This document shows, in pieces, positions 315 through 17,856 of a stretch of 22,336 nt of DNA. Below the pieces are notes generated by a model that was not told where the DNA came from, searched no databases, and saw only the letters and a list, made by a program, of their open reading frames with translations. A program made the position numbers and the translations under genes. How positions within the stretch are numbered: position 1 is the first letter of the stretch; the number at the start of each line of letters is the position of its first letter. The stretch spans positions 1 to 22,336 of the IMG/VR virus record IMGVR_UViG_3300035180_003311; one strand, written 5' to 3'. The DNA is from a virus.

Positions 315-953
315 TTATTTTGAAGATTTTGCTACCATAGCTTTTTCTTTAGCAGCTTTTTCTTTAGCAGCTTTTTCTTTAGCTAATTTATCTTTTGCTG
401 ATTGCATATCTTTTTCTTTTTTTGCTTTTTCTTTAGCTAATTTATCTTTAGCCATTTGAGAATCTTTTTTGGCTTTTGATGATACTGCCGCAGGATCTCT
501 TTTCTTAGCATTAACAACTAATGTTGCTAATTTAAGACTTAAACTAGAGCCGTTAGACAATCCGATTGAATCAAGTGCGGCTGATGCTGTTAATAAACCA
601 TCAATTGCAACATCAAATGCGGCTGATACTTGTAACGCATCATCGTCTGCATATGAACTATCCATGTGATCTTTTGTATCATAGTCTTCAGAAGATGAGC
701 CGTCTGATTCAGAAGATGAGCTACTAGAATCAGAAGATGAGCTACTATAATCATCTGACGAATCTTTTACATCATTGTCATTTGCTTTATTTTTATTACA
801 TACACATAACGATTGCTTGCATACATGACAAGACGCATCTTTTTCATCTGAGGCATATTTATATTGTGTTGCAAAAAGAGACTTATGTTCGTCACTTTTC
901 AATACTGTATCCATTGCTACCGCAACAAAATCTGATATATTACTATTTTTCAT
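315..953 (-). CDS. Ser/Asp-rich cysteine-motif protein with Lys/Ala coiled tail, unknown function
   Basis: The 212-residue protein has four parts. The N-terminus includes SLFATQYKYAS. A small cysteine cluster C42-x2-C45-x4-C50-x-C52 is a likely metal knuckle. A strongly acidic serine-rich tract (about residues 63-105) is encoded partly by a 21-bp tandem repeat. A helical segment follows with A-x-x-A-L-D-S-I-G, then a Lys/Ala/Glu tail from about 155 built of A-K-E-K-A units. GAGGAAAT precedes the ATG at good spacing. It sits directly downstream of the protease-scaffold gene. Low complexity and charge separation suggest an internal or scaffold-like virion protein. The serine tract could be phosphorylated, which is speculative. 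No enzyme signature is present. Confidence 0.7.
   Translation of the reverse strand: MKNSNISDFVAVAMDTVLKSDEHKSLFATQYKYASDEKDASCHVCKQSLCVCNKNKANDNDVKDSSDDYSSSSSDSSSSSSESDGSSSEDYDTKDHMDSSYADDDALQVSAAFDVAIDGLLTASAALDSIGLSNGSSLSLKLATLVVNAKKRDPAAVSSKAKKDSQMAKDKLAKEKAKKEKDMQSAKDKLAKEKAAKEKAAKEKAMVAKSSK
339..383 (-). repeat. 15-bp tandem repeat, three exact copies (AKEKA coding)
   Basis: The unit agctttttctttagc (plus strand) occurs three times head to tail without mismatch. It keeps frame and encodes Ala-Lys-Glu-Lys-Ala units at the C-terminus of the 315-953 protein. Imperfect relatives continue to about 460, consistent with growth of the basic/acidic helix by replication slippage. Confidence 0.9.
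688..750 (-). repeat. 21-bp tandem repeat, three copies (Ser/Asp/Glu coding)
   Basis: Three units beginning tcagaagatgagc start at 688, 709 and 730, an exact 21-base period. They encode the serine/aspartate-rich tract of the 315-953 protein. The period is a multiple of three, so copy number can change without a frameshift. Confidence 0.85.
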
Positions 954-974
954 TTATTTCCTCTATTATTACGA

Positions 975-3900
975 TTAGAACATTCTCTTTGTTGTTTTAC
1001 TAAATGCAGCGGATAATTGTGACCAATCATCGTCCGCAAATACAGCACTGTTCATTTCACCAGAGCCAATCATACCAACTTGTGGCATACGTCCAGCTTC
1101 TTTGTGCATTACTGGCGAGTGTCTTGCAACAACTTTCTTCAATGTTTCAAAATTTGCTTCATTAAAATTCATTAATTCATCAACGTGGGATGCAATAATT
1201 TGTCTGTCGTGAGCTACTAATCCACGATCAACCATGTCATAAGTTAATTCATAAGCTCTTGCCATTTTAATCTTGAATGTATTTAACTCTTTTTCAAGTT
1301 CAGCTTTAACATGCTCTTTTACAAGCTCACTTGCGAACTCTCCTCCGCCATCAACATCTCCAAAGTATTTCTTGTAATAAGAAACTGCATCTTTGTCTAG
1401 ACCTTCTGCAACTAGTGCATCTAAATCTGTTGGATCAAGTTTACCTTCTGAAACTAGTCTATGAATTGCTTCAGCTTCTTTACGAACCTTTGGTGGTGCG
1501 CCAGCTAATTCCATCATACGACGATTTACTTCTGGAAGTGTCTCGACCAATCCAAGATTATCAGATGGTTTTACATCTAATTCTGTTTGTCCATCAGTAA
1601 GACTATTCGCAGTATCTAACATATCACTGAATTTAGCCTTTGACATATCTTGAAGATCTCCGCTATCTTCTTTCCCTAGCGCATTTGCCGCTAATTTTGC
1701 TCTTAGAGCCGAACGTCCTGCTTTTGAATTAAATGAAGCGCCTTTGTATTGTAGTTCTTTATTAGCTAATTCTGGCGGAACAACTTCTCCGGCCTCAAAT
1801 TTAAGATCATTATCATCAGCATGGTTTTTATCTTCAAGACCCTCAAGACCCTCAAGACCCTCAAGATCCTTAAGATCCTTAAGATCCTTAAGATCCTTAA
1901 GATCCTCAACATGTTCTAAAGCGCCATGTTCGTGTGGCTCTACTTCATCATCTAATAATGCCATAAGCGCTGCATCGTTATCTTCTTTATTATTACCCAT
2001 ATCCATATCATGATCTCCGGCTAATGCTTGTAGTTGTGCTTCGACTTCGGCGCGCTTTACTATTGCTTGAGTGCCACGAGCATATTTTACGAATGCAGTC
2101 ATTAATTCAAATCCGCTTGCAAGAGCTGTTTTTGAATCTGTTAATGCGTCCTCTATAATAGATGATACAAAATCATTATTTGAATTACTTATAGCGCCAT
2201 TATCATGCATATCAGAAATCATATCTAGTTCTTGTTGGTGATCTGCTAATTTAGCAATTGCATCTTTCATAGCGTAACTTAATTCACTATTAAGTTCTCT
2301 TCTAATTGAATTCATGTGAGCTACACTAAATGAATTTGATGCACTTGCCGCCTTTTGTACAGACTCTTCTGGAGTTGCTTTGCCAATTTCATTTGATTCA
2401 CCTGTTAATGCGTTAACAGCTTCTTTTAAATCTGAAATTTGCTCATTTAATTTTTCGGAAGTTGCTTGAACCTCTTCCATTAATTGTGGCGCTGATTCTT
2501 TTGGATCACCTGTTGCTCCAGCGTCTTGTCCCACTGGCATTGCATCAACTGCTGCTGATTCTGGGGATGCTGGTGCCGGTGGTGCTGATGGTGCTGGTGG
2601 TGCTGGTGGTGCTGCTTGGGCATCTTGTCCACTTTTAACTAATGCGCGAACTCTATCTGCGCCAAATGTCTTAATATTATCAAGTAATTTTGCGCCGTAT
2701 TCTTTTGTGGCGATATTAGAATACATCTCATTAACTTTGCCACCAGATAAATCACCTACAGATGCACTAAGTAATAGTTTGTCTCCTAAATAAACTTCCC
2801 AAGCACTCTTTGCTAAATTTTGAGTACCATCACTATTTGATGCGCCAACAAATCTAGCTTTTAATGATGCTCTGCGTAATAATTCTTTACGCTTTAATTC
2901 ATCTGAAATTTCGGCGGAATTTGGTGATGGGTGCATTTCATCTACTGGCCCAACACCTGGGAATGGCTTTTGTCCTACCATATGTTTATCAGAATCCTCA
3001 CGAAGATCATATTGTAGTTTATCTACTGGATATTTTTGTTGACCTGGTGTTGGTGATCCTGGATTTTTATCGCTACCATTTTGAAAATATGCTTTTTTAT
3101 TTTCAAGAGCCTGTTTTGCAAGAGTAACAATTGCATTGCGTTTCATTGCATTTTCTTCTGCCTGAGCACGAGCAAGCATTTTCTTGCGCTCAAGTTCGCT
3201 AGATACATCTGCTGAACTTGGTGATGGATGAATCCCATCTACTGGTCCAACATCTGGGAATGGTGATTGTCCTACCATTTGTCTGTCTTCATTTTCACGA
3301 AGTTGCTCATTAAGAGGATCCTTTGTGTATTTGGCTTGACCAGGTGTAGGCTCCTCGGTACCTTGGTAATAACCCTTTTTATTTATCTCTTTTGATCCAG
3401 GCATGTTTTCCTCTTGTGTTTGTGTAAAACTGTTTGATAACTTATCTAAGTTTATTTTCATAAAGCTAATTTTTTCTTCAATGGCTGCCGTAACCTTACG
3501 GAGCTCACTTATTGAATCCATATCCAAATCCTCAGAAGCAAATCTTGCATGAGGTGGAGCCAATCCAGAATCCGTATTTGGTACATCAGTCTCATCCATC
3601 GCAATGGTTCCTGATGATTGATTGAATGCATAATTATTAGCATCTTGTTGAGATAAATCAACTGAACTCTTAATTTCGCCTAATTTATTTACGGCGGTTT
3701 CAAGCTCACTGCGGAATTGTTCCAAACTATCTGCATTAATATCTAATCTATTACTCTTATTTCCAGACTGATCTCCAACAGTAACTGAAATTGAAGCGGA
3801 ATATGTTTCATTGGCTAATTTTCTTAATTCATTAGAACGATTTTCTAAGTAATTATTCATTGTATTTGCGGCAGCAATAATATGTTTAATATTGGCTTTT

Positions 3901-4613
3901 GGATCCGCACCATTTACAACAATTGATAATTCAATGGGATTTAAGTCTACGTTAATTTCGCCATAGCCGCTCTTTTTACGCATATGTTCACAGAAATCAC
4001 TTTCTGTTCTAGCTACTCTGGCACAATCTGAACAAATTGCTTTTCCAACGGCAGTGCCCATTGATACGCTATTTGAAACTCCAGTTGAAACTTGTCTAGC
4101 TAATTGTGGATAACCTTTTTTATCTAACGCGCATAATGCAATAACTCTTTTTAAGTTACGATCATAATATGTATCAACAATAAAGCCTCTTACATGATCT
4201 ACTGAGCTTGATTTATGATCTATGCAAAGAGGCTTTCCTACCCACTTCCTATATGCTTTAACTAATTCTTCTTCTGGAAATATATCGCCATTTGAATTTT
4301 TATATGGTTTAACATTAGAGTCATTAGAAGTCCATCTCCAAGTTCCTCCGCTTTTATCCCAGCCTACCTGAACTTGCTCGCCTCTTGCTGTTAATTTATT
4401 AGTTCCATCATCGTTAAGTGCGGCAGCCTCAGCTGCATGCATCATAATAGCAGAAAAATATAAAAAATCTTCAGCTTTTGGCGCGACTTTTTTTAAGTTA
4501 GATGCAAATTTTTTGAAATTATCTAAAATTTCTTGACTAACAGCTGGTATACAAGAATCAGTATTTTCAACCCTGCTAATCTCAATAAGTTCGCCTAGTT
4601 TAATAAATGACAT
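975..4613 (-). CDS. Prohead maturation serine protease fused to a long scaffold-like region
   Basis: The 1212-residue protein carries an N-terminal prohead protease (about 1-250). Visible are GKPLCIDHK with H133, a second H140, TGVSNSVSMG with S184 as likely nucleophile, a zinc-like C194-x2-C197-x10-C208-x-H210, and NPIELSIVVNGADP at 225-238, typical of the herpes-assemblin-like phage protease fold. Behind it lie a duplicated module (about 413-485 and 508-582, each with TPGQ..KY, MVGQ.PFP.VGPVD and HPSP.SA), a small globular segment (about 603-662), a Pro/Ala linker (668-684), helical regions, a DLK/GLE repeat and a helical C-terminus. Stand-alone prohead proteases are usually a few hundred residues or fewer, so this is a fusion. 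GGGAGA precedes the ATG. It should process capsid and scaffold and may cleave itself. The protease call is strong; the scaffold role is inferred. Confidence 0.85.
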   Translation of the reverse strand: MSFIKLGELIEISRVENTDSCIPAVSQEILDNFKKFASNLKKVAPKAEDFLYFSAIMMHAAEAAALNDDGTNKLTARGEQVQVGWDKSGGTWRWTSNDSNVKPYKNSNGDIFPEEELVKAYRKWVGKPLCIDHKSSSVDHVRGFIVDTYYDRNLKRVIALCALDKKGYPQLARQVSTGVSNSVSMGTAVGKAICSDCARVARTESDFCEHMRKKSGYGEINVDLNPIELSIVVNGADPKANIKHIIAAANTMNNYLENRSNELRKLANETYSASISVTVGDQSGNKSNRLDINADSLEQFRSELETAVNKLGEIKSSVDLSQQDANNYAFNQSSGTIAMDETDVPNTDSGLAPPHARFASEDLDMDSISELRKVTAAIEEKISFMKINLDKLSNSFTQTQEENMPGSKEINKKGYYQGTEEPTPGQAKYTKDPLNEQLRENEDRQMVGQSPFPDVGPVDGIHPSPSSADVSSELERKKMLARAQAEENAMKRNAIVTLAKQALENKKAYFQNGSDKNPGSPTPGQQKYPVDKLQYDLREDSDKHMVGQKPFPGVGPVDEMHPSPNSAEISDELKRKELLRRASLKARFVGASNSDGTQNLAKSAWEVYLGDKLLLSASVGDLSGGKVNEMYSNIATKEYGAKLLDNIKTFGADRVRALVKSGQDAQAAPPAPPAPSAPPAPASPESAAVDAMPVGQDAGATGDPKESAPQLMEEVQATSEKLNEQISDLKEAVNALTGESNEIGKATPEESVQKAASASNSFSVAHMNSIRRELNSELSYAMKDAIAKLADHQQELDMISDMHDNGAISNSNNDFVSSIIEDALTDSKTALASGFELMTAFVKYARGTQAIVKRAEVEAQLQALAGDHDMDMGNNKEDNDAALMALLDDEVEPHEHGALEHVEDLKDLKDLKDLKDLEGLEGLEGLEDKNHADDNDLKFEAGEVVPPELANKELQYKGASFNSKAGRSALRAKLAANALGKEDSGDLQDMSKAKFSDMLDTANSLTDGQTELDVKPSDNLGLVETLPEVNRRMMELAGAPPKVRKEAEAIHRLVSEGKLDPTDLDALVAEGLDKDAVSYYKKYFGDVDGGGEFASELVKEHVKAELEKELNTFKIKMARAYELTYDMVDRGLVAHDRQIIASHVDELMNFNEANFETLKKVVARHSPVMHKEAGRMPQVGMIGSGEMNSAVFADDDWSQLSAAFSKTTKRMF
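1834..1905 (-). repeat. 9-bp minisatellite, eight units, inside the protease-scaffold gene
   Basis: Eight consecutive 9-base units are seen on the plus strand: three tcaagaccc, one hybrid tcaagatcc and four ttaagatcc. Read on the minus strand they encode runs of Asp-Leu-Lys, then Gly-Leu-Glu. The two homogenised subtypes with one hybrid between them indicate two rounds of local expansion. Confidence 0.95.
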
Positions 4614-4907: not shown

Positions 4908-5567
4908 TTATGATTTTCTCTCCTTTATTACATTATTTAATTTTTGCTGCCTCTGATTAAAAAGATCTATAATTAAAGGCGTTTTTTCTTCAATTTTCAT
5001 TTGCAATTCATTGCTTACAGAATCTACCCAACTTGTTGCTAAAATATTAGATTGAATATGATTTTTTATTCTATCATCTATTATTTTTTCAATCTCATCG
5101 CATTGCTCTTGAATTCCTTCAATAGATGTAACGACATTTTTTGTAAAATCTTTTGACTCTAAATCATTAAATAAAAGTGCAAAATCATTAACTGAATTCT
5201 CTAAATCATTTACAGAATTAATAAAAGACTTCATTAATTTTACTGTTTGCGTATCTGATGCGAATGGTTGCATAGAATTAACGCACTTAAAAGCATATTT
5301 CTTAAAGATAGTAAAATTCTCTAATGATTTATCTCTAAATTTACGAATTTTTACCCTAGCATTAAATACTGCTTTGGGATCCATTTCTGGATTATCTTTA
5401 AATGGTGTTTTCATTATGTTAAGATGCTCTTTGGCTGAACTCAGCTTTTTCATAGCATGAGTAAAACTCAATAAAGCATTTTCTGCTGACTCTTTTTCCG
5501 AATCAGAAATATCGTATGACATTTGCGTACTATACGATTTCTTAATTATGCCATTTCCATTAGTCAT
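4908..5567 (-). CDS. Helical (coiled-coil) phage protein, unknown function
   Basis: The 219-residue protein is taken from the ATG at 5567, with GGTGGA upstream at suitable spacing; an in-frame GTG at 5579 would add four residues. It is mostly predicted helix: MKTPF near residue 52, then long heptad-like stretches with many Asn, Asp, Lys and Leu (for example FINSVNDLENSVNDF) and a charged end. There is no signal peptide, membrane segment or catalytic motif. The start overlaps the phosphatase stop by eight bases, so the two are translationally coupled. It is probably a structural or internal head protein; no family can be named. Confidence 0.7.
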   Translation of the reverse strand: MTNGNGIIKKSYSTQMSYDISDSEKESAENALLSFTHAMKKLSSAKEHLNIMKTPFKDNPEMDPKAVFNARVKIRKFRDKSLENFTIFKKYAFKCVNSMQPFASDTQTVKLMKSFINSVNDLENSVNDFALLFNDLESKDFTKNVVTSIEGIQEQCDEIEKIIDDRIKNHIQSNILATSWVDSVSNELQMKIEEKTPLIIDLFNQRQQKLNNVIKERKS

Positions 5568-6306
5568 ATATAAATCCACCAGTATTTAAAGTTGGTCCAG
5601 TTCCTTGTATCCCAGTGTTATTATACACTCCAACCAAAGGCACAACATCTTTATGTTCTTTTATTGACTTATAATCATTATAATTTTCACGAGTTGGAGA
5701 CTGATCATTAATATCATTATATACACTATCAAATGGATATTGTCTGGTAGGACTTAAATATGGAGCAAAAGAACCCTGATGTGCCTCGTCTAATGGTCCA
5801 GAGCGATTATCACTAATATATTCTCTTTCATTAGAAACTATATCAGCATTGTTATTATCTTTTGAAGGTTTGCATGATCTAATTATTTTTTCATATAAAT
5901 TAATTATTTGGGGGTCTACGCCAACACCGAATCCCAAAGATTTAGCTTCTTCAATTGCGTCTTCTGGATCTTTACCCATATATTTACATTCAAATAGTGC
6001 CGCTAATAACCCAGTTCTATCTTTGCCTTCATAACAATGAATATAAGTCGGACCATCATCAAGTAATAATTTCTTTAAATTATGCTGAAGCAAATTAAGT
6101 AATGAACTTCTACTGCCATCTAAATATATTTTTTCTTGCTTAATATTTAATAACTTACATGTTCTAGATATTCTCTCTCCAGACATTTCATCGAGACTTA
6201 TAATTTTATTTATTCCAAGATTATTTTTAAGAATCTGAACGTCATGCGGCGAAGGGGCGCTTCCACGCCACAAACCTTCCGTTATTTTTTTTAGTCTTTT
6301 AATCAT
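5560..6306 (-). CDS. Dual-specificity/tyrosine phosphatase-like protein
   Basis: The 248-residue protein has an N-terminal cysteine-phosphatase domain (about 1-152) and an Asn/Asp/Pro-rich, probably disordered tail. The signature is at 89-99, IHCYEGKDRTG, giving nucleophile C91, phosphate-binding R97 and a following Thr-Gly. ITEGLWRGSAP near residue 8 matches the start of atypical dual-specificity phosphatase domains, and D63 is a candidate general acid. The family hydrolyses phosphotyrosine or phosphoserine/threonine, and some members act on RNA 5' ends or phosphoinositides; the substrate here is unknown. It overlaps the upstream gene by ATGA and the downstream gene by eight bases, so it belongs to the head operon. 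The active site looks intact. The biological role is open. Confidence 0.85.
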   Translation of the reverse strand: MIKRLKKITEGLWRGSAPSPHDVQILKNNLGINKIISLDEMSGERISRTCKLLNIKQEKIYLDGSRSSLLNLLQHNLKKLLLDDGPTYIHCYEGKDRTGLLAALFECKYMGKDPEDAIEEAKSLGFGVGVDPQIINLYEKIIRSCKPSKDNNNADIVSNEREYISDNRSGPLDEAHQGSFAPYLSPTRQYPFDSVYNDINDQSPTRENYNDYKSIKEHKDVVPLVGVYNNTGIQGTGPTLNTGGFIYD

Positions 6307-7043
6307 TGAGATAAATTCCTAACTAAATTATTAAGAACAACCCTAATATATTGAGGACTATGCCCAAAAAGTATCTGTTTAACGAAACTAATGCTCTGAC
6401 CAATAGATGATGACGCTGGTATATTTTTATTAGCTACTTCATCCGCATAAAATTTGTGCTTTAAATTTTCAATAGCAGACATTCTTTTATCTGGAGATAA
6501 TTTGTTAATTGTAAACTTTACAATATCAGAAAGATATTTTCCAACTAAAGCAGGATCCCCTAATTCACTTACTGCCGCATTTTTAACTAATTTTTTTTTC
6601 AATTTAATTGGATGTACCTTATTAAATTTAATAAGAGAATTTTGTAATGCAACTTTTTCTGGTTTTTGTAGTTTTTTCTTAACAGCAGAATCAAATGCAT
6701 CTTTAAAAAATTTCAAAAATAACATAACTTGTTCTTTAGATGCTTTTTGCCTCATTTTACGCATTATCGCAGAATAGGCAAATTCATCAGCATCCATTAA
6801 ATCAATTACGTCCTGATTATCATCAGATTTCATTTTATCTCTATGTTTAAAAAACTCAACTTGTTTTAATCTTTTAACTGCTTGAGTTTTAGTATCTGAA
6901 GTACCTAAATTTTTACCTTTTTGAGATAATACGCGAAATTTACCACTTGGCAGCTTTCTAATACGAGCATATTTGACCAAATTATTAATGCAATTTGATT
7001 CATAATACTCTGCAAGTTGTGATATTTCGTTTATAGTTTTCAT
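6303..7043 (-). CDS. Basic helical phage protein with a KLPSGKxRVLS element, unknown function
   Basis: The 246-residue, lysine-rich protein carries an N-terminal element at about 26-68: IRKLPSGKFRVLSQKGKNLG, then AVKRLKQVEFFKH. This looks like a small beta-hairpin followed by a helix, possibly nucleic-acid or capsid binding. The remainder is helical, with many Lys/Leu segments and a C-terminus ending NNLVRNLSQ. The start ATG overlaps the stop of the 7040-7435 gene (ATGA), and its own TGA overlaps the phosphatase ATG the same way, so three genes are coupled. There is no catalytic signature. The basic charge fits an internal DNA-contacting virion protein; this is inference only. Confidence 0.7.
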   Translation of the reverse strand: MKTINEISQLAEYYESNCINNLVKYARIRKLPSGKFRVLSQKGKNLGTSDTKTQAVKRLKQVEFFKHRDKMKSDDNQDVIDLMDADEFAYSAIMRKMRQKASKEQVMLFLKFFKDAFDSAVKKKLQKPEKVALQNSLIKFNKVHPIKLKKKLVKNAAVSELGDPALVGKYLSDIVKFTINKLSPDKRMSAIENLKHKFYADEVANKNIPASSSIGQSISFVKQILFGHSPQYIRVVLNNLVRNLSQ

Positions 7044-10349: not shown

Positions 10350-12155
10350 TTATACTGGAGGAGGTCCGCCTGGAGGTGGTCCGCTTGGCGGTGGCGGTCC
10401 ACCCATTGAAGGCATAGGAGGTGAACCACCTACATCTAATCCTGGTAATCCCCCCGGAGCTTCTCCTGGCAATGGCGCCCCTGGCTGTCCTTGCATCTGA
10501 GCATCTGAAATTTCATCATCATCATCTAGTGCTCTTAATGCGTTTAGATCCATGGTTCCTAATGCTGCCTTTTCTTTTGCAAAAATAACATTTTGAATTG
10601 ATTCTTTGCGCATTTTTCTAATTTCATCTTCATATTCAAGACCCATTGATCTATATAGTGTATGCAATGATGCTCTTTTAGCATCGCCCTCTCCCTGAGT
10701 TAACGTAACTAAATTGTTAATATAGTCACCAGCATCAAATAATGACATATGATTCCAATCAATATCTGGAATAATAAGTTGTTTTTCACCATTTGAGTAA
10801 TCATAAAATCCTTGAATTTTAGATATTGGTGCAAAAATCTTTCTTTTTAACCAATGAGTAAGCATATTACGGAAACCCATATAACGTTGTCTTAATACAT
10901 CAAGGGCAACTCCGCCATTTGCATATGTTGTGTCTGCGCCACCATCCATTAATACTGATGGAACCTGCAAACCAACATATATTTCTTTTATAATCTGTGT
11001 TATATCCCCAGAAATATCATATATTCCAGCCCCATAACCAATTCTTTCAACAGTAACTCCAGCATGGCTAAAGATTTTGAAATCTTTATCATATTGAGCC
11101 TCTTCAAATACATTTTTCCAAGCCTCTATGTCTGCAAATGTTGGATGTAATCCATCTGGTCCATCAGTTCCAATTTTAACTAATGTTAATGGATTAATCA
11201 TATTATCAGCTTGCGCATATTTTGATTCGCGAAGTTTATCAAATAACATTAACTGGCGGAAAATACAAACAGGAAGTCCGGTCCCCCTAATTTCATAAGG
11301 GCTTATCTTTCTTGCCAAATGATGAACATGGAAATTATCTAGTGGAATATTTTGCCCACGTTTTACTGAATCAATAATGTGTTGATTTAATTGTTTTCGC
11401 TGTTCAATATCATTTGGTTTATTTGAAAATACTATCTTTTTTAAATTTTCATCTGGTCGTAGCATTATAATAGGCTCATCTGCCACTACAGTTCTTTTCA
11501 CAATCATATAATCAGGGTTTTGAATTAATAATCTACTCCATTTCCCTTTACTTTCATCTAGTTCGGCATATACAAATGATTCTCCCAATAACCAATATTC
11601 TTGAGCTATTTGCACGCAAATATTCATTAAATCAATTTCTTCAATCATATCATTGAAGAATTTTTCAATATCTTTATTGGGGCATTTTATATTTAATTTA
11701 CTAATAGGATATGTACTATGAAGATTAATAGCATTATGTACAAAAGGATTTAACGCATAAAAACTTCTACACCAAGCATTAATAGTTGGGCGGTCTCTTG
11801 GTAAATTTAAATTACTATTTAACCATAATGGAGAATATACTTCTGGTGTTTGTTTTACGACATTACCTCCAGAGCCTCCAAAGCCGCCACCACTACTTAC
11901 AACTTGAGCATATTTGCTTAAACCAACAGATGATGTTACAAAAGATGCATTGGTATGACCATTTTCTTTTGGAGATGGTCCCGATCCATCTCTAAATAAA
12001 CCATTATCTACTTCATTAGAGAGAATATCTCTTCTAGATTGTGATACACCTTTAGCCATAAGTGCGCTAACCTGCGGAACTGAAGATCTAGATTGTAAAT
12101 ATTGATCTGAATTGGATGGTCCAATCCATATTTTTTGAGTTTTATTAATAACCAT
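10350..12155 (-). CDS. Portal protein
   Basis: The 601-residue product is a phage portal, the dodecameric ring at the capsid vertex through which DNA is pumped and to which the tail attaches. A flexible glycine-rich N-terminus (GGGFGGSGGN near 89-98) precedes the portal core: DRPTINAWCRSFYALNPFVHNAI, split here as DRPTINAWCRS then FYALNPFVHNAI, then EYWLLGESFVYAE, a clip/wing region with IRGTGLPVCIF, and the long helical segment with KEIYVGLQVPSVLMDGG and RQRYMGFRNML. The C-terminus (about 545-601) is a Gly/Pro/Met tail with PPPP runs, probably disordered. It directly follows the terminase gene, the usual order, with a TGAGG ribosome site. Length is normal to somewhat long for portals. Assignment rests on fold-like motifs and context. 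Confidence 0.85.
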   Translation of the reverse strand: MVINKTQKIWIGPSNSDQYLQSRSSVPQVSALMAKGVSQSRRDILSNEVDNGLFRDGSGPSPKENGHTNASFVTSSVGLSKYAQVVSSGGGFGGSGGNVVKQTPEVYSPLWLNSNLNLPRDRPTINAWCRSFYALNPFVHNAINLHSTYPISKLNIKCPNKDIEKFFNDMIEEIDLMNICVQIAQEYWLLGESFVYAELDESKGKWSRLLIQNPDYMIVKRTVVADEPIIMLRPDENLKKIVFSNKPNDIEQRKQLNQHIIDSVKRGQNIPLDNFHVHHLARKISPYEIRGTGLPVCIFRQLMLFDKLRESKYAQADNMINPLTLVKIGTDGPDGLHPTFADIEAWKNVFEEAQYDKDFKIFSHAGVTVERIGYGAGIYDISGDITQIIKEIYVGLQVPSVLMDGGADTTYANGGVALDVLRQRYMGFRNMLTHWLKRKIFAPISKIQGFYDYSNGEKQLIIPDIDWNHMSLFDAGDYINNLVTLTQGEGDAKRASLHTLYRSMGLEYEDEIRKMRKESIQNVIFAKEKAALGTMDLNALRALDDDDEISDAQMQGQPGAPLPGEAPGGLPGLDVGGSPPMPSMGGPPPPSGPPPGGPPPV

Positions 12156-12233: not shown

Positions 12234-14126
12234 TTACATTCTTCTTGATATATATCCCGACATAACAAGTGGCTTATTAATTTGTTTAAAACTTTGTGTC
12301 ATTAAAATTGGGTTATTATTCGTAAATCCTTTTGTAATAATGAATTTATACGCCAAATATGCATTTAAAAGAGCCATGAAACCATCGTTTGGTGTACCAC
12401 CTTTAACATAATGAACAGTAGGTTCACCTATTCTGGATATTGATGGTTTTATTTCCATACTTGCACAGTGCTCTATTAACCAAGCAACTTTTTCATAGTC
12501 ACCAAATGGAAATTTGATTTGACCATTTTTCATATAATCATACAATTCTGAAATATAGTAGTCTCTCTCAAAACATATTTCTTTAGGGAAGGCATCCTCT
12601 GAATATTTTACATGACCATTGACTTTATTGTGCGCCCTTGATACAATGTAACGATCTCCATAAGCATTATGTAAAATATTAGAAAAGTCTGCAGAATAAC
12701 CAATATCTCCCACAGCTAATTGAACGCTGTATTGTCTCATTAACTGATCAATAATGCCCTTTTTACTTTCCAAATCATTTCTTTTAAATTTGGTAGCAAA
12801 CTCTATATTAAGTAATTGGGGACCTTTTGCCGATAAAATTACTGCTGTACTATATGATTGCCCTACGGATTTAACTTTATCTGGATTTGCTAATTGCTCT
12901 AAATCTGCTCTAGCTCCGTAATCTATACCCATAACAACAATTTGTCCCATAATTGATGCGCCTGGTGGTGGCGGCAGTATTCTTGCACTAAATTTTCTTC
13001 CAACATCAGCACATTTTTCCCTAATTTCTTCCGTTGTAATTGGGCTAGAATCACCTTGAAAAAATTCTCCTAAAACTTCATTCATAAATACGCGTTCGGT
13101 ATTGATTGGATGAATACCGGGCTTTTCTCTAATGATATCTTCTTTTGTAAACATTGGCATATAAAGCTGGTTTATATGAAATCCTACCATAAGACAGTCT
13201 GGGTCATTTTGATCTTTAATGGCTACCCACTTACCACGCTCTGCTGCATCTAATTTATTTTGTTCATGACCACATTTAGTACATTTTACTATGTGACCAT
13301 ATAACCAAATCTTTTCCCAATCATCTGAGCCAGGTGTATAAAGTGGGAAATGAGCCTTACACTTCTCACAACCTAAATAATAATATTGCTGTGATGATGT
13401 CTGCCACATTTTATGAAAATCAGAACCTTTGCGACGTGGAGTTCCAAAATATATTTGAACACCTTTAGATGGCTTTCCATATTTTGCAGTTGTTAATATT
13501 TTAAGAGCATTTCCAATTGCCTGGCTAGTAGTTTTCTGAACTTCATCAAAAAACATAACATCACAAGTTCTACCCATTATTCTATCTGCATCTAAACCCG
13601 TTGATTCTACCCATAAATGGTTACCTCCAATAAATTGTTTAAAATGTAAAGAATCATTTGTTGCAGTTGATTGGTCTAACAATGTCTGCATATAAGATTT
13701 TGTCTTTTTAGAATCATCTCCCGTTGAGATTTGAACAGATGATGAGATCATTTGATTAAGTTTTGTTTTAGAATAAGCCGCAGCCAATTCTAATTGTGGA
13801 AATGCATGAATAATTCTTATTGGAGGTTTATCTCCAACACCAAACATTCCAGATCCCATAAAATACATCTCTAATGCACTTGCCATCGTAGTAGCGCCAA
13901 CCTGTCGACCTTTAACCATAATAACAGGTTTGGAATTTGGTTCAAGTGCCTTAATTCCAATATAACGATATATATCGGCGAAAGGTCGATACCCATTTCC
14001 ATGTAATCTAAATGGTTTTCCATCTAACATTAAAAATTGCTCGGTAAATGCAACCGGGTCTAGCATTAATAATTGTTTTTTTAACTTAAGAAATAACTCT
14101 TTATCTTCTATATTTATAGTTCCCAT
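12234..14126 (-). CDS. terL: Terminase large subunit, GpA-like
   Basis: The 630-residue packaging motor has an N-terminal ATPase and C-terminal nuclease. Walker A is VKGRQVGATT (71-80), Walker B is MFFDE (191-195) with catalytic E195, and the coupling motif is YFGTP (226-230). A zinc-ribbon insertion with C253, C256, C282 and C285 is typical of the GpA-like family. Nuclease acidic residues are D402 in MGIDYG, D474 in VGDIGYS and D581 in PNDGF. All key residues are present, so it should be active, translocating DNA into the prohead through the portal and cutting concatemers. The start ATG lies 26 bases from the divergent zinc-finger gene, and no clear Shine-Dalgarno is seen. Upstream read-through would have to cross that antisense gene, so terL may have its own promoter. 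Confidence 0.96.
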   Translation of the reverse strand: MGTINIEDKELFLKLKKQLLMLDPVAFTEQFLMLDGKPFRLHGNGYRPFADIYRYIGIKALEPNSKPVIMVKGRQVGATTMASALEMYFMGSGMFGVGDKPPIRIIHAFPQLELAAAYSKTKLNQMISSSVQISTGDDSKKTKSYMQTLLDQSTATNDSLHFKQFIGGNHLWVESTGLDADRIMGRTCDVMFFDEVQKTTSQAIGNALKILTTAKYGKPSKGVQIYFGTPRRKGSDFHKMWQTSSQQYYYLGCEKCKAHFPLYTPGSDDWEKIWLYGHIVKCTKCGHEQNKLDAAERGKWVAIKDQNDPDCLMVGFHINQLYMPMFTKEDIIREKPGIHPINTERVFMNEVLGEFFQGDSSPITTEEIREKCADVGRKFSARILPPPPGASIMGQIVVMGIDYGARADLEQLANPDKVKSVGQSYSTAVILSAKGPQLLNIEFATKFKRNDLESKKGIIDQLMRQYSVQLAVGDIGYSADFSNILHNAYGDRYIVSRAHNKVNGHVKYSEDAFPKEICFERDYYISELYDYMKNGQIKFPFGDYEKVAWLIEHCASMEIKPSISRIGEPTVHYVKGGTPNDGFMALLNAYLAYKFIITKGFTNNNPILMTQSFKQINKPLVMSGYISRRM

Positions 14127-14155
14127 ACTAATATAATGGTATATGTACTAGTATG
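14124..14155. promoter_or_regulatory. Divergent start region with an inverted repeat containing both start codons
   Basis: CATACTA (14124-14130) and TAGTATG (14149-14155) are perfect inverted copies. Each outer triplet is a start codon, of terL leftward and of the zinc-finger gene rightward. TATAAT lies at 14132-14137 on the plus strand. Neither start has a clear Shine-Dalgarno. The region could be a shared operator or back-to-back promoter. Confidence 0.45.
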
Positions 14156-14785
14156 TCTTCACAGAAAAAAGACGGTCCGAAACAATGTATCAAATGCCAT
14201 CATTTATTGACTAATAAAAATTGGAATAAATATGATAAAGATGTAAGTCATTATATTTGTAGTTTATGTAGAAAAGAACAAGATAAAACAAGATATACAT
14301 CAAATTCTGAGTATAATAAAAAACAAATAAGCAGATATCATCGTAAGCGTAGCGCAGTAATTCATGCATATGGAGATAGCTGCGTAATATGTGGGTCTGA
14401 TGATTATGAAAAATTAATGATTGAGAATATTAATAATAAAAAGGTAAAATCATTATACGAATATCTATATAATCAACCTCCATTAAAAAATGAATATCAG
14501 GTTTTGTGCTATAATTGTAACGCCAATAAAAACACAAAATATAAAGACAAATACTTTCTAATTAATAAAAAAATAGTTATTGAAAAATTTGGCAATAAAT
14601 GTCGTGAGTGTGGTGAAGATAAAATTACACTATTAACTATTGCTTATAAAAATGAAATTGGCGTCGAAAAACGACGCCAAAACAAGTGTTGTGCCAACTC
14701 TGCATTCTATAGATCTATTATTAAAAATAATTTTATAGATAATGATTTAGAAGTATTGTGCTATAACTGTAATCAGGTTATTTAG
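14153..14785 (+). CDS. Zinc-finger protein with two degenerate HNH-like units
   Basis: The only rightward gene, 210 residues. It contains three Cys4 modules: C12/C15/C36/C39 (a small ribbon with NWNKY), C77/C80/C119/C122 and C150/C153/C203/C206. The last two resemble each other (CVICG then VLCYNCN; CRECG then VLCYNCN) and match the layout of phage HNH homing-type nucleases, in which a T-I-D-H-I-N-N-D-G segment carries the catalytic His. Here that segment reads MIENINN (residues 89-95) in the first unit and LTIAYKNE (161-168) in the second, so Asp-His is replaced in both. It is probably DNA binding and nuclease-dead. It converges with the 14778-15458 gene, sharing eight bases at the stops. Its inverted orientation suggests insertion into the packaging cluster. 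It is the only gene ending in TAG. Confidence 0.75.
   Translation: MSSQKKDGPKQCIKCHHLLTNKNWNKYDKDVSHYICSLCRKEQDKTRYTSNSEYNKKQISRYHRKRSAVIHAYGDSCVICGSDDYEKLMIENINNKKVKSLYEYLYNQPPLKNEYQVLCYNCNANKNTKYKDKYFLINKKIVIEKFGNKCRECGEDKITLLTIAYKNEIGVEKRRQNKCCANSAFYRSIIKNNFIDNDLEVLCYNCNQVI
14644..14680 (-). terminator. Possible intrinsic terminator for leftward transcription, inside the rightward zinc-finger gene
   Basis: TTGGCGTCG (14658-14666) and CGACGCCAA (14672-14680) form a perfect nine-base GC-rich stem with a five-base loop. Read leftward it is followed by TTTCATTTTTAT, an interrupted U-tract, so it fits an intrinsic terminator on the minus strand about 100 bases beyond the stop of the 14778-15458 gene. 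Read rightward no U-tract follows. The same bases encode I-G-V-E-K-R-R-Q of the zinc-finger protein. Confidence 0.55.
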
Positions 14786-16499: not shown

Positions 16500-17099
16500 T
16501 TATGTATTATAAAAAGTGTTTCCAGAATTAGTGGTTCCATATTGAGATTGTTCATTACTTGGAGCATCTAAATCTTCAGGATCATTTATACCATCAGGAA
16601 GCCCATATAATGACGTCTCTTTTGGCGTTAATATTTGCGGTCCACCTTTATGACATTTGGGGCATGGATAAGTTACATCATATATTACGTCTTTATTCCC
16701 AATAAATCCACAATTAGCACAGCCTTTTGGAATATAATCATCCGCATCCGCATCCGCATCCGCATCAGCATAGCCATGATTAAGAGCAGTGTTAGGCTTT
16801 CCTTCAAAGTCTGGCAATAACATGGATTCATCCGATAATCCACCAATTTGCGCAGCATCACTTGCCGTACCGGAATTTCCTAAAATAGGTGTTGAGCCTA
16901 TTTGATCATCAATTGGAAAATCGATAGCAATTTTTAATATTCTAGATAATAGCATTGCCCTCGTTTTCATTTTACTAATACGTTGTTTTCTATTAGATTC
17001 TGTGTATTCAATCCAAGAGTCATCTGCTTTATACTTATCCTTCATCTTTTTTCTTCTATCTTTTAAAAAGTCAGAAACACTTTTATAATTTTGAAACAT
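16500..17099 (-). CDS. Zinc-ribbon protein with an AD-repeat linker, unknown function
   Basis: The 199-residue protein is taken from the ATG at 17099, with AAAGG eight bases upstream; the frame also offers ATG at 17117, six codons earlier, which overlaps the nucleotidyltransferase more. A basic helical N-terminus (FLKDRRKKMKDKY) leads to an acidic linker with an ADADADADAD run and a Cys4 ribbon C127-x2-C130-x15-C146-x2-C149 containing PCPKCHKGGP. A Gly/Asn/Ser-rich tail ends the protein. Zinc ribbons of this type often mediate protein or nucleic-acid contact. Its start lies within the end of the nucleotidyltransferase gene, so translation is coupled. The specific role is unknown. Confidence 0.7.
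   Translation of the reverse strand: MFQNYKSVSDFLKDRRKKMKDKYKADDSWIEYTESNRKQRISKMKTRAMLLSRILKIAIDFPIDDQIGSTPILGNSGTASDAAQIGGLSDESMLLPDFEGKPNTALNHGYADADADADADDYIPKGCANCGFIGNKDVIYDVTYPCPKCHKGGPQILTPKETSLYGLPDGINDPEDLDAPSNEQSQYGTTNSGNTFYNT
16741..16770 (-). repeat. 6-bp tandem repeat, five units (Ala-Asp coding)
   Basis: Four exact tccgca units and one tcagca (plus strand) encode alternating Ala and Asp in the linker before the zinc ribbon of the 16500-17099 protein. Copy changes would stay in frame. Confidence 0.9.
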
Positions 17100-17856
17100 T
17101 AATTTTGCCTTTAACATTTTTTAAATAATATGGTTGAGCAATTTCTGTTATTGGTATATGTTTCCATAAATTCATTTTTGTTATTAAGTAACTTGCTTTA
17201 TCTGCATCTCTCTCAAATGCTTCATTAATTTTTTCTACTAATAATTTGTTGCTAGATATTTGCACAGTTTGAGGATTTTTCGATACAAATTCAATTATAC
17301 TATTATCTACATCAAAACCTAATTTAGCTGCCAAATATATAGATCGTATTACTCTATTTCTATTTGTTGTTAAAGTAATTTCCGGAGATAAACATGTTCT
17401 AATAGTTTTATCTTTTAAGTCTTTAAACCCTCTATTAGTTGGGTCAGTGATATCTTTTAAATCTAATGATAATATTAAAGAATTACATGTAAAATCTCTA
17501 CTAAACATTTCTTTTTGCATACTAGTAGGATTTTTGATATTCATGTTCGCTAAAATTGAATCTATATTGGGGCAATTAAAATTAGAAGAAAAATCTAATT
17601 TTAATTTTCCTATAAATATAGTATTGTGGTCTGTTAATGTTTTTCTAATTACATTATACTTTTTGCTTAATTCACTGCCAAACTCACTTGATAGATAATC
17701 AATACTTTTATCTCCAGTAGTTATATCAATATCAGAAATATTCTCTAAATGACCAAGATATTTATCTCTTGGTGTACCTCCGCAAATTTTAGGCGGCGAA
17801 GATTTTGTTTTTTCCGCCACTCGTTCCATTATTTGAAGTAATTCTCTTAGTTTCAT
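17083..17856 (-). CDS. PAP/CCA-family nucleotidyltransferase (poly(A) polymerase or tRNA CCA-adding type)
   Basis: The 257-residue enzyme has the class II nucleotidyltransferase head and neck. GGTPRDKYLG (26-35) followed by SDIDITTGD gives the G-G...D42-x-D44 catalytic pair, and LKLDFSSNF supplies a third candidate carboxylate D88. FSRDFTCNSLILSL (118-131) matches the R-R-D-F-T-x-N-A motif, and NRNRVIRSIYLAAKLGF (165-181) matches the nucleotide-binding helix. Such enzymes add nucleotides to RNA 3' ends without a template. The protein is shorter than typical bacterial members (often 350-450 residues), lacking much of the body and tail, so tRNA recognition may be altered. No ribosome site is evident; the ATG follows the upstream stop by six bases, suggesting coupled translation. 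Placement in the structural operon is unusual. The substrate is unknown. Confidence 0.87.
   Translation of the reverse strand: MKLRELLQIMERVAEKTKSSPPKICGGTPRDKYLGHLENISDIDITTGDKSIDYLSSEFGSELSKKYNVIRKTLTDHNTIFIGKLKLDFSSNFNCPNIDSILANMNIKNPTSMQKEMFSRDFTCNSLILSLDLKDITDPTNRGFKDLKDKTIRTCLSPEITLTTNRNRVIRSIYLAAKLGFDVDNSIIEFVSKNPQTVQISSNKLLVEKINEAFERDADKASYLITKMNLWKHIPITEIAQPYYLKNVKGKINVSKL

What the first reader, a model, noticed from the sequence alone, without database searches (positions are those of the whole stretch)
5560..6306. Intact cysteine phosphatase within a phage head-assembly operon
The sequence shows HC-x5-R (H90, C91, R97) and an atypical-DSP-like N-terminus, coupled by overlapping codons to structural genes on both sides. 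Phosphatases of this type are rarely discussed as phage morphogenesis genes. It could dephosphorylate a virion protein (the Ser/Asp-rich 315-953 product is a candidate), be packaged and act on host signalling, or process RNA 5' ends. The active site is seen in sequence; the role is inference.
Basis: partly seen in the sequence, partly recalled or inferred. Interest (0 to 1): 0.72.

Follow-up and report, generated by a model that had tools for sequence, protein, structure and literature searches.

The report
Huge-phage phosphatase with conserved tail
A large group of giant, uncultured bacteria-infecting viruses carries, among the genes that build and fill the virus head, a protein phosphatase with an intact active site and a unique conserved floppy tail, probably an enzyme built into the particle, a known theme in insect and pox viruses but hardly described in phages.

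Summary
Window 6306-5560 (minus strand) encodes a 248-aa protein with an intact PTP-fold domain (HC-x5-R; Pfam PF03162 above its cut-off; AlphaFold2 pLDDT ~90+; Z 16 to Siw14/PFA-DSP1). It is not a stray gene. It is a single-copy gene at the same position, between the same two uncharacterised genes, in the portal-protease segment of a clade of huge phages (contigs up to 481 kb). Its active site, HCxxGKDRT, is the published MptpB-type P-loop signature and is kept in 81 of 83 distinct sequences. Each protein also has a ~100-aa tail, predicted disordered, as conserved as the enzyme domain and found nowhere else. Natural variants separate the parts. One phage (L024) lost the catalytic Cys and Arg; its enzyme domain decayed while its tail stayed normally constrained. 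A nested two-member clade lost the gene, together with g131. So catalysis is under strong selection but is not needed for head assembly, and the tail does something besides catalysis. Best reading: a tail-docked, probably virion-borne phosphatase. Packaging, activity and substrate are not shown. The Ser-rich substrate candidate is not supported. A conserved kinase-like gene occurs in all 13 contigs of at least 268 kb. New variant of a known kind.

The parts
5560..6306 (-). Phosphatase gene, 248 aa, ATG 6306, stop 5560-5562
   Evidence: orthologues at the same place
5869..6306 (-). N-terminal PTP-fold domain, residues 1-146
   Evidence: PF03162/PF13350 above cut-off; pLDDT ~90-95; Z 16 to AtPFA-DSP1/Siw14
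6010..6039 (-). P-loop H90-C-Y-E-G-K-D-R-T-G99; nucleophile C91, K95, D96, R97
   Evidence: HCxxGKDRT in 81 of 83 distinct orthologues; published signature HCXXGKDR (PMC3091653)
5563..5868 (-). C-terminal tail, residues 147-248: two conserved motifs (DxNNADIVSNxREY...SFAPYL...DQSPTRENY and PxVGxYDNxAGxxGxGPxENxGGF), predicted disordered
   Evidence: alignment A3; conservation equal to the enzyme domain; pLDDT <60; one copy per genome, never without the PTP domain
6303..7043 (-). Conserved upstream neighbour (up246), no known family above cut-off; 4-nt overlap with the phosphatase start
4908..5579 (-). Conserved downstream neighbour (down223), no known family; fused in frame to the phosphatase in L061
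7040..7435 (-). g131, conserved small protein; lost together with the phosphatase in L233/L252
7445..8572 (-). Lytic transglycosylase-domain protein (SLT)
   Evidence: PF01464 22.4 bits, cut-off 21.3
10350..12155 (-). Portal protein
   Evidence: phrog_16240 E 2.7e-52; 32.6% to Bacillus phage G portal
12234..14126 (-). Terminase large subunit
   Evidence: PF05876 1e-13; phrog_675 3e-59
975..4613 (-). Long protein with N-terminal head maturation protease domain
   Evidence: phrog_18299 4.5e-15, residues 106-214
315..953 (-).

Best explanation
The gene encodes a cysteine-based phosphatase of the Siw14/TpbA (atypical dual-specificity) fold with an MptpB-type P-loop. C91 would form the phospho-cysteine, R97 and K95 would hold the phosphate, and D96 inside the P-loop would act as general acid. 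Its disordered, strongly conserved C-terminal tail docks the enzyme on a phage protein made from the same cluster (candidates: down223, up246, g131, portal or the protease-scaffold protein). The enzyme is thereby built into the prohead or portal region and carried in the virion. Its activity serves the phage early in infection or in the particle (host phospho-signalling, or phospho-groups on phage proteins), rather than being needed to assemble heads. Shown here: fold, intact catalytic residues, purifying selection on both parts, single copy, fixed location, and separability of tail and catalysis. Inferred: activity, docking, packaging, delivery and substrate.
For: Fold and family. Active site: HCxxGKDRT in 81/83, Cys/Arg in 82/83, identical to the published signature in which Lys and Asp of the P-loop were shown to matter (PMC3091653); there is no conserved acid in the usual D-loop, while D96 is invariant. 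Selection: dN/dS mostly 0.02-0.16 in both domain and tail for close pairs. Location: same neighbours in every locus that reaches the site, except the one clade that lost the gene; one copy in each of 20 long contigs. Tail role apart from catalysis: in L024 (HC..GKDR changed to HG..DEDI) mean identity to other orthologues is 0.36 in the enzyme domain (median 0.58) but 0.53 in the tail (median 0.55), 0.56 in up246 and 0.62 in down223; the domain-minus-tail difference is about 4 SD from the mean. Physical linkage: in-frame fusion to down223 in L061 and co-loss with g131 in L233/L252. Precedents: AcMNPV PTP is a component of the apical cap beside the DNA portal (PMC12103608); vaccinia H1 phosphatase is a core protein whose loss gives normal-looking but non-infectious virions (PMC4213562); phage enzymes encoded among head genes are often inferred to be packaged (PMC9503650).
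Against: There is no proteomic or biochemical evidence. Position in a late cluster does not prove packaging. The adjacent genes have no known function. The single dead orthologue is one case and the gene-less clade two contigs of 10-13 kb, in which the gene could have moved elsewhere. No tail motif is shared with other proteins, so no general head-targeting signal was found. The closest cultured relative, Bacillus phage G, lacks the gene, so no virion data exist to consult.
Confidence: 0.5

Rival explanations
1. Morphogenesis regulator: the phosphatase acts inside the infected cell on phosphorylated phage structural proteins, possibly countering the phage's own kinase-like protein, and is not itself a virion component.
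For: Late-gene position. A conserved kinase-like gene with G-loop, Lys, HxDxHxRN and DxD residues occurs in 13 of 13 contigs of at least 268 kb, so a phage-encoded kinase/phosphatase pair is plausible.
Against: Catalysis lost in L024 and the gene lost in L233/L252 while the cluster stays intact; the tail is retained without catalysis; the kinase-like gene lies far from the phosphatase and its activity and substrate are unknown; the Ser-rich candidate substrate is not conserved in its Ser run.
Confidence: 0.22
2. Counter-defence or host-signalling enzyme expressed late from the head operon only for convenience, acting free in the cytoplasm; the tail binds a host partner.
For: MptpB-type enzymes act on host phospho-substrates; catalysis under strong selection yet dispensable in some lineages.
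Against: Never found at another locus in 20 long contigs or with other accessory genes; a fixed place among late genes is unusual for an accessory gene; in-frame fusion to down223 in one phage.
Confidence: 0.18
3. RNA 5' or nucleotide phosphatase, as known for baculovirus PTP.
For: Same superfamily fold; baculovirus RNA 5'-phosphatase appears among Foldseek matches.
Against: P-loop is HCxxGKDR, the published protein/phosphoinositide signature; better matches to Siw14, DSP1 and TpbA.
Confidence: 0.06
4. The protein is mainly structural and its enzyme domain is a vestige.
For: Tail as conserved as the domain; one dead orthologue.
Against: 81 of 83 keep the whole active-site signature and dN/dS in the domain is mostly 0.03-0.16.
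Confidence: 0.04

Closest known systems
UniProt A0A6J5RU40 'Protein-tyrosine phosphatase, SIW14-like' [uncultured Caudovirales phage]
   Same: 89% identity over 248 columns in Foldseek/BFVD; plainly an orthologue, already labelled as a phosphatase in the database
   Different: No described role, tail, cluster position or clade-wide conservation in the name; no such family in PHROGs
Siw14 / AtPFA-DSP1 / bacterial TpbA (PF03162, atypical dual-specificity phosphatases)
   Same: Fold (Z 15-16), sequence profile, CX5R active site
   Different: ~20% identity; P-loop GKDR instead of GKHR/GNNR as in the printed alignments; long conserved phage-specific tail
MptpB / atypical lipid phosphatases (HCXXGKDR; PF13350), PMC3091653
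   Same: P-loop signature HCxxGKDR[TA]G with conserved Lys and Asp; no conserved D-loop acid
   Different: Sequence similarity to MptpB confined to the active-site stretch; lipid activity untested
AcMNPV (baculovirus) PTP, a nucleocapsid apical-cap component (PMC12103608)
   Same: CX5R phosphatase of a dsDNA virus, sited by the portal vertex of the particle
   Different: Unrelated virus; globular docking without a long tail; RNA triphosphatase activity; the phage protein is not shown to be in virions
Vaccinia H1 (VH1) phosphatase
   Same: Virus-encoded phosphatase described as a core protein needed for infectivity but not for virion form (PMC4213562)
   Different: Different virus realm; packaging of the phage protein unproven
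Bacillus phage G (Donellivirus gee)
   Same: Closest cultured phage by portal (32.6%)
   Different: No match to the phosphatase, the tail or down223 profiles

Membership tests
CX5R protein tyrosine / dual-specificity phosphatase superfamily | PTP fold (Rossmann-like sheet with P-loop at helix N-terminus) | tested here: met
   AF2 domain pLDDT ~90-95; Foldseek E down to 5e-8; VIA Z 16.3, rmsd 2.7 over 139 residues
CX5R protein tyrosine / dual-specificity phosphatase superfamily | Catalytic Cys and phosphate-binding Arg in HC-x5-R | tested here: met
   H90, C91, R97; Cys and Arg kept in 82/83 distinct orthologues
CX5R protein tyrosine / dual-specificity phosphatase superfamily | Phosphatase activity lost on C to S | not testable with these tools
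   needs purified protein
Pfam PF03162 (Y_phosphatase2, Siw14-like) | Score above the curated cut-off | tested here: met
   34.2 bits against 27; 11 of 13 long contigs over cut-off
Siw14 / PFA-DSP inositol pyrophosphatases | Activity on inositol pyrophosphates | not testable with these tools
   P-loop differs (GKDR, not GKHR; alignment)
MptpB-type atypical lipid phosphatases | P-loop HCXXGKDR with Lys and Asp | tested here: met
   81/83; signature from PMC3091653
MptpB-type atypical lipid phosphatases | Further conserved regions C1-C3 and C5 along the whole chain | tested here: inconclusive
   PF13350 above cut-off but matched only at residues 79-105; 1ywf (PtpB) matched only over 28 profile positions
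MptpB-type atypical lipid phosphatases | Phosphoinositide and protein phosphatase activity | not testable with these tools
   needs assay
Virion-packaged viral phosphatase (VH1, AcMNPV PTP type) | Protein present in purified particles | not testable with these tools
   uncultured phages; only cluster position, fusion and tail conservation
Phage head/packaging gene cluster | Terminase, portal and maturation protease nearby | tested here: met

The most novel reading that the evidence does not exclude
A whole clade of huge phages uses its own core kinase-like protein and a tail-docked, virion-borne phosphatase as a reversible phosphorylation pair, analogous to the vaccinia F10 kinase and H1 phosphatase, to control particle maturation or to reset host phospho-signalling at injection. 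This would be a regulatory layer not described in tailed phages.
Probability: 0.15. Interest if true: 0.8.

Novelty: new variant of a known kind. Interest (0 to 1): 0.52.

Why it matters
It shows a signalling-type enzyme kept as a core gene of a head cluster in many phages of the largest size class, with natural variants that already separate its catalytic and non-catalytic roles. If virion-borne, it would be a tailed-phage counterpart of the particle-bound phosphatases of baculoviruses and poxviruses and would make the question 'do phages use reversible protein phosphorylation in or from the virion?' testable. The conserved tail could also be a cargo-loading signal for huge phage heads.

Tried and rejected
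Chance motif or pseudogene: rejected. Stray cargo gene: rejected by single-copy, fixed-place conservation. Host-derived tail: no tail in the cellular-genome hits listed, which match mainly the active-site region or the PTP domain (best cellular hit a Bdellovibrio MAG protein, residues 2-126, 36%). Tail as a shared head-targeting signal: the tail profile finds nothing else in 20 long contigs or the flanks. Ser-rich 315-953 protein as substrate: Ser run not conserved. Annotated phages: no PTP match in 50,697 records at E 0.1. Bacillus phage G as a cultured model: lacks phosphatase, tail and down223 matches. More catalytically dead members: a scan with the L024 protein found only itself and the active L023/L086 contig; a scan for more divergent members added none without the catalytic Cys and Arg. 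PHROGs/NCBIfam scans of neighbours gave no functions. Literature: no paper pairs dual-specificity phosphatase with jumbo phage; passages found in two jumbo-phage overviews do not discuss one.

Full report
WHAT IS THERE. The ORF at 6306-5560 (minus strand) is 248 aa and has HCYEGKDRTG at residues 90-99. Its N-terminal ~146 residues are a PTP-fold phosphatase domain: PF03162 34.2 bits against a cut-off of 27 and PF13350 28.4 against 22.2. Nearest solved relatives by sequence are TpbA, Siw14 and AtPFA-DSP1 (profile E 5e-12). With 64 orthologues as alignment, AlphaFold2 gives block pLDDT mostly 87-95 for residues 1-140 and under 60 for the tail; VIA-align gives Z 16.3, rmsd 2.7 over 139 residues to AtPFA-DSP1 and Z 16.1 to Siw14. 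The gene overlaps its upstream neighbour by 4 nt and its downstream neighbour by 8 or 20 nt. The window is an IMG/VR fragment of 22,336 bases.

WHERE IT OCCURS. PHROGs holds no such family and 50,697 annotated phage genomes gave no match. In IMG/VR the terminase and the phosphatase bring in the same clade. In every locus that reaches the place, the phosphatase lies between up246 and down223, in the order terminase - portal - g564 - SLT - g131 - up246 - phosphatase - down223 - protease protein - Ser-rich protein; the only exception is the gene-less clade described below. Twenty contigs of 160-481 kb each have exactly one phosphatase and one tail. The closest cultured phage by portal is Bacillus phage G (32.6% identity), which has no match to either. 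One close orthologue already sits in UniProt as 'SIW14-like' (A0A6J5RU40, 89%). Detection of the protein is therefore not new; its clade-wide conservation, tail and natural variants are what this work adds.

ACTIVE SITE. Of 83 distinct N-terminally complete sequences, 81 have HCxxGKDRT, one (L215) has GCSAGKDRT and one (L024) has HGQKDEDIS. HCXXGKDR[TA]G is the published landmark of MptpB-like phosphatases, in which the P-loop Lys and Asp were shown by mutagenesis to serve substrate binding and catalysis, and which act on phosphoproteins and phosphoinositides (PMC3091653). In the phage family no acid is conserved in the loop where other PTPs keep their general acid (position 63 is D in 51% and D/E in 72%), whereas D96 is invariant. 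The inferred mechanism is: C91 attacks, R97 and K95 hold phosphate, D96 protonates the leaving group.

THE TAIL. Residues 147-248 are as conserved as the enzyme domain (mean column majority 0.67 and 0.68). The tail is predicted disordered, occurs once per genome, and is never seen without the PTP domain. It has two conserved blocks separated by a variable linker; L096 carries a ~100-aa insertion there. dN/dS for close pairs is mostly 0.02-0.16 for both parts.

NATURAL VARIANTS. (1) L024 lost Cys and Arg. Its enzyme domain has diverged to a mean identity of 0.36 with other orthologues (median 0.58), while tail (0.53, median 0.55), up246 (0.56) and down223 (0.62) are ordinary; the domain-minus-tail difference is about 4 SD from the mean of all orthologues. 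Catalytic loss was thus accompanied by decay of the domain alone. (2) L233 and L252 have no phosphatase between a shortened up246 and down223, and also lack g131; g131 is present in all 146 other loci (many overlapping) where both flanks are held. Their down223 sequences form one clade (support 1.0) nested among phosphatase-bearing phages under midpoint rooting, so this is most likely a loss, with the caveat that the contigs are short. (3) In L061 the phosphatase, tail included, is fused in frame to down223. Together these say: catalysis is selected but not needed for head assembly; the tail has a role of its own; g131 and down223 are the likeliest partners. The last is inference.

KINASE-LIKE GENE. 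A 203-236 aa protein with G-loop (GxGADGxVF), VIK lysine, HxDxHxRN and DxD residues is present in 13 of 13 contigs of at least 268 kb and in none of eight shorter, probably partial ones. It scores below Pfam's Pkinase cut-off (20.5 against 31.7 bits) and lies elsewhere in the genome. A phage-encoded kinase/phosphatase pair is possible but unproven.

INTERPRETATION. I favour a tail-docked phosphatase carried in the particle, by analogy with AcMNPV PTP, found in the apical cap beside the DNA portal (PMC12103608), with vaccinia H1 (PMC4213562) and with the general inference that phage enzymes encoded among head genes are packaged (PMC9503650). No step from activity onwards has been tested. RNA 5'-end processing is disfavoured by the P-loop type.

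NOVELTY. The enzyme fold and virion-bound viral phosphatases are known; a core phosphatase with its own conserved tail in huge-phage head clusters was not found in the literature searched (search limited to open-access PMC). I rate it a new variant of a known kind.

Noticed in passing
L021:7870-10815, L023:454-2781 (terminase); L023:2840-6910 and L027:11948-14956 (portal): Terminase large-subunit genes of several relatives hold inteins (PF14890 above cut-off in L021 and L023); enlarged portal genes carry LAGLIDADG domains. The window's own copies are uninterrupted.
   Followed up: partly
window 14153-14785 (+): Antisense ORF with paired CxxC motifs, HNH-like by eye, just upstream of terL; homologues at the same spot in many relatives, probably a homing endonuclease; no Pfam hit.
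   Followed up: no
L160:1000-1617, L157:1486-2121, L158:1480-2139, L240-L248: Conserved kinase-like core gene of these huge phages, in all 13 contigs of at least 268 kb, with the full set of kinase hallmark residues.
   Followed up: partly
L233:8537-9709, L252:3992-5167: Lineage that lost the phosphatase, g131 and the N-terminal ~70 residues of up246 while keeping the rest of the cluster: points to a functional unit of these three pieces.
   Followed up: partly
L031 3546-4404, L092 10736-11034, L093 10751-11987, L191 147-932: Unusually long gaps between phosphatase and down223 in some relatives; in L191 a LAGLIDADG endonuclease lies directly before down223, so the junction may be a target of mobile elements.
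   Followed up: no
window 315-953 and downstream genes in L170, L174, L187: N-termini of several small proteins after the protease gene look alike (SDFVAxxMDxxL, FEDELxxxMxxxL) and could be a shared prohead-targeting signal.
   Followed up: no
window 17083-17856 (-): CCA-adding / poly(A) polymerase head-domain protein (PF01743) inside the structural cluster and conserved there in the relatives.
   Followed up: no
window 975-4613 (-): Tandem DLKDLKDLKDLKDLEGLEGLEGLED repeat inside the protease-scaffold protein.
   Followed up: no
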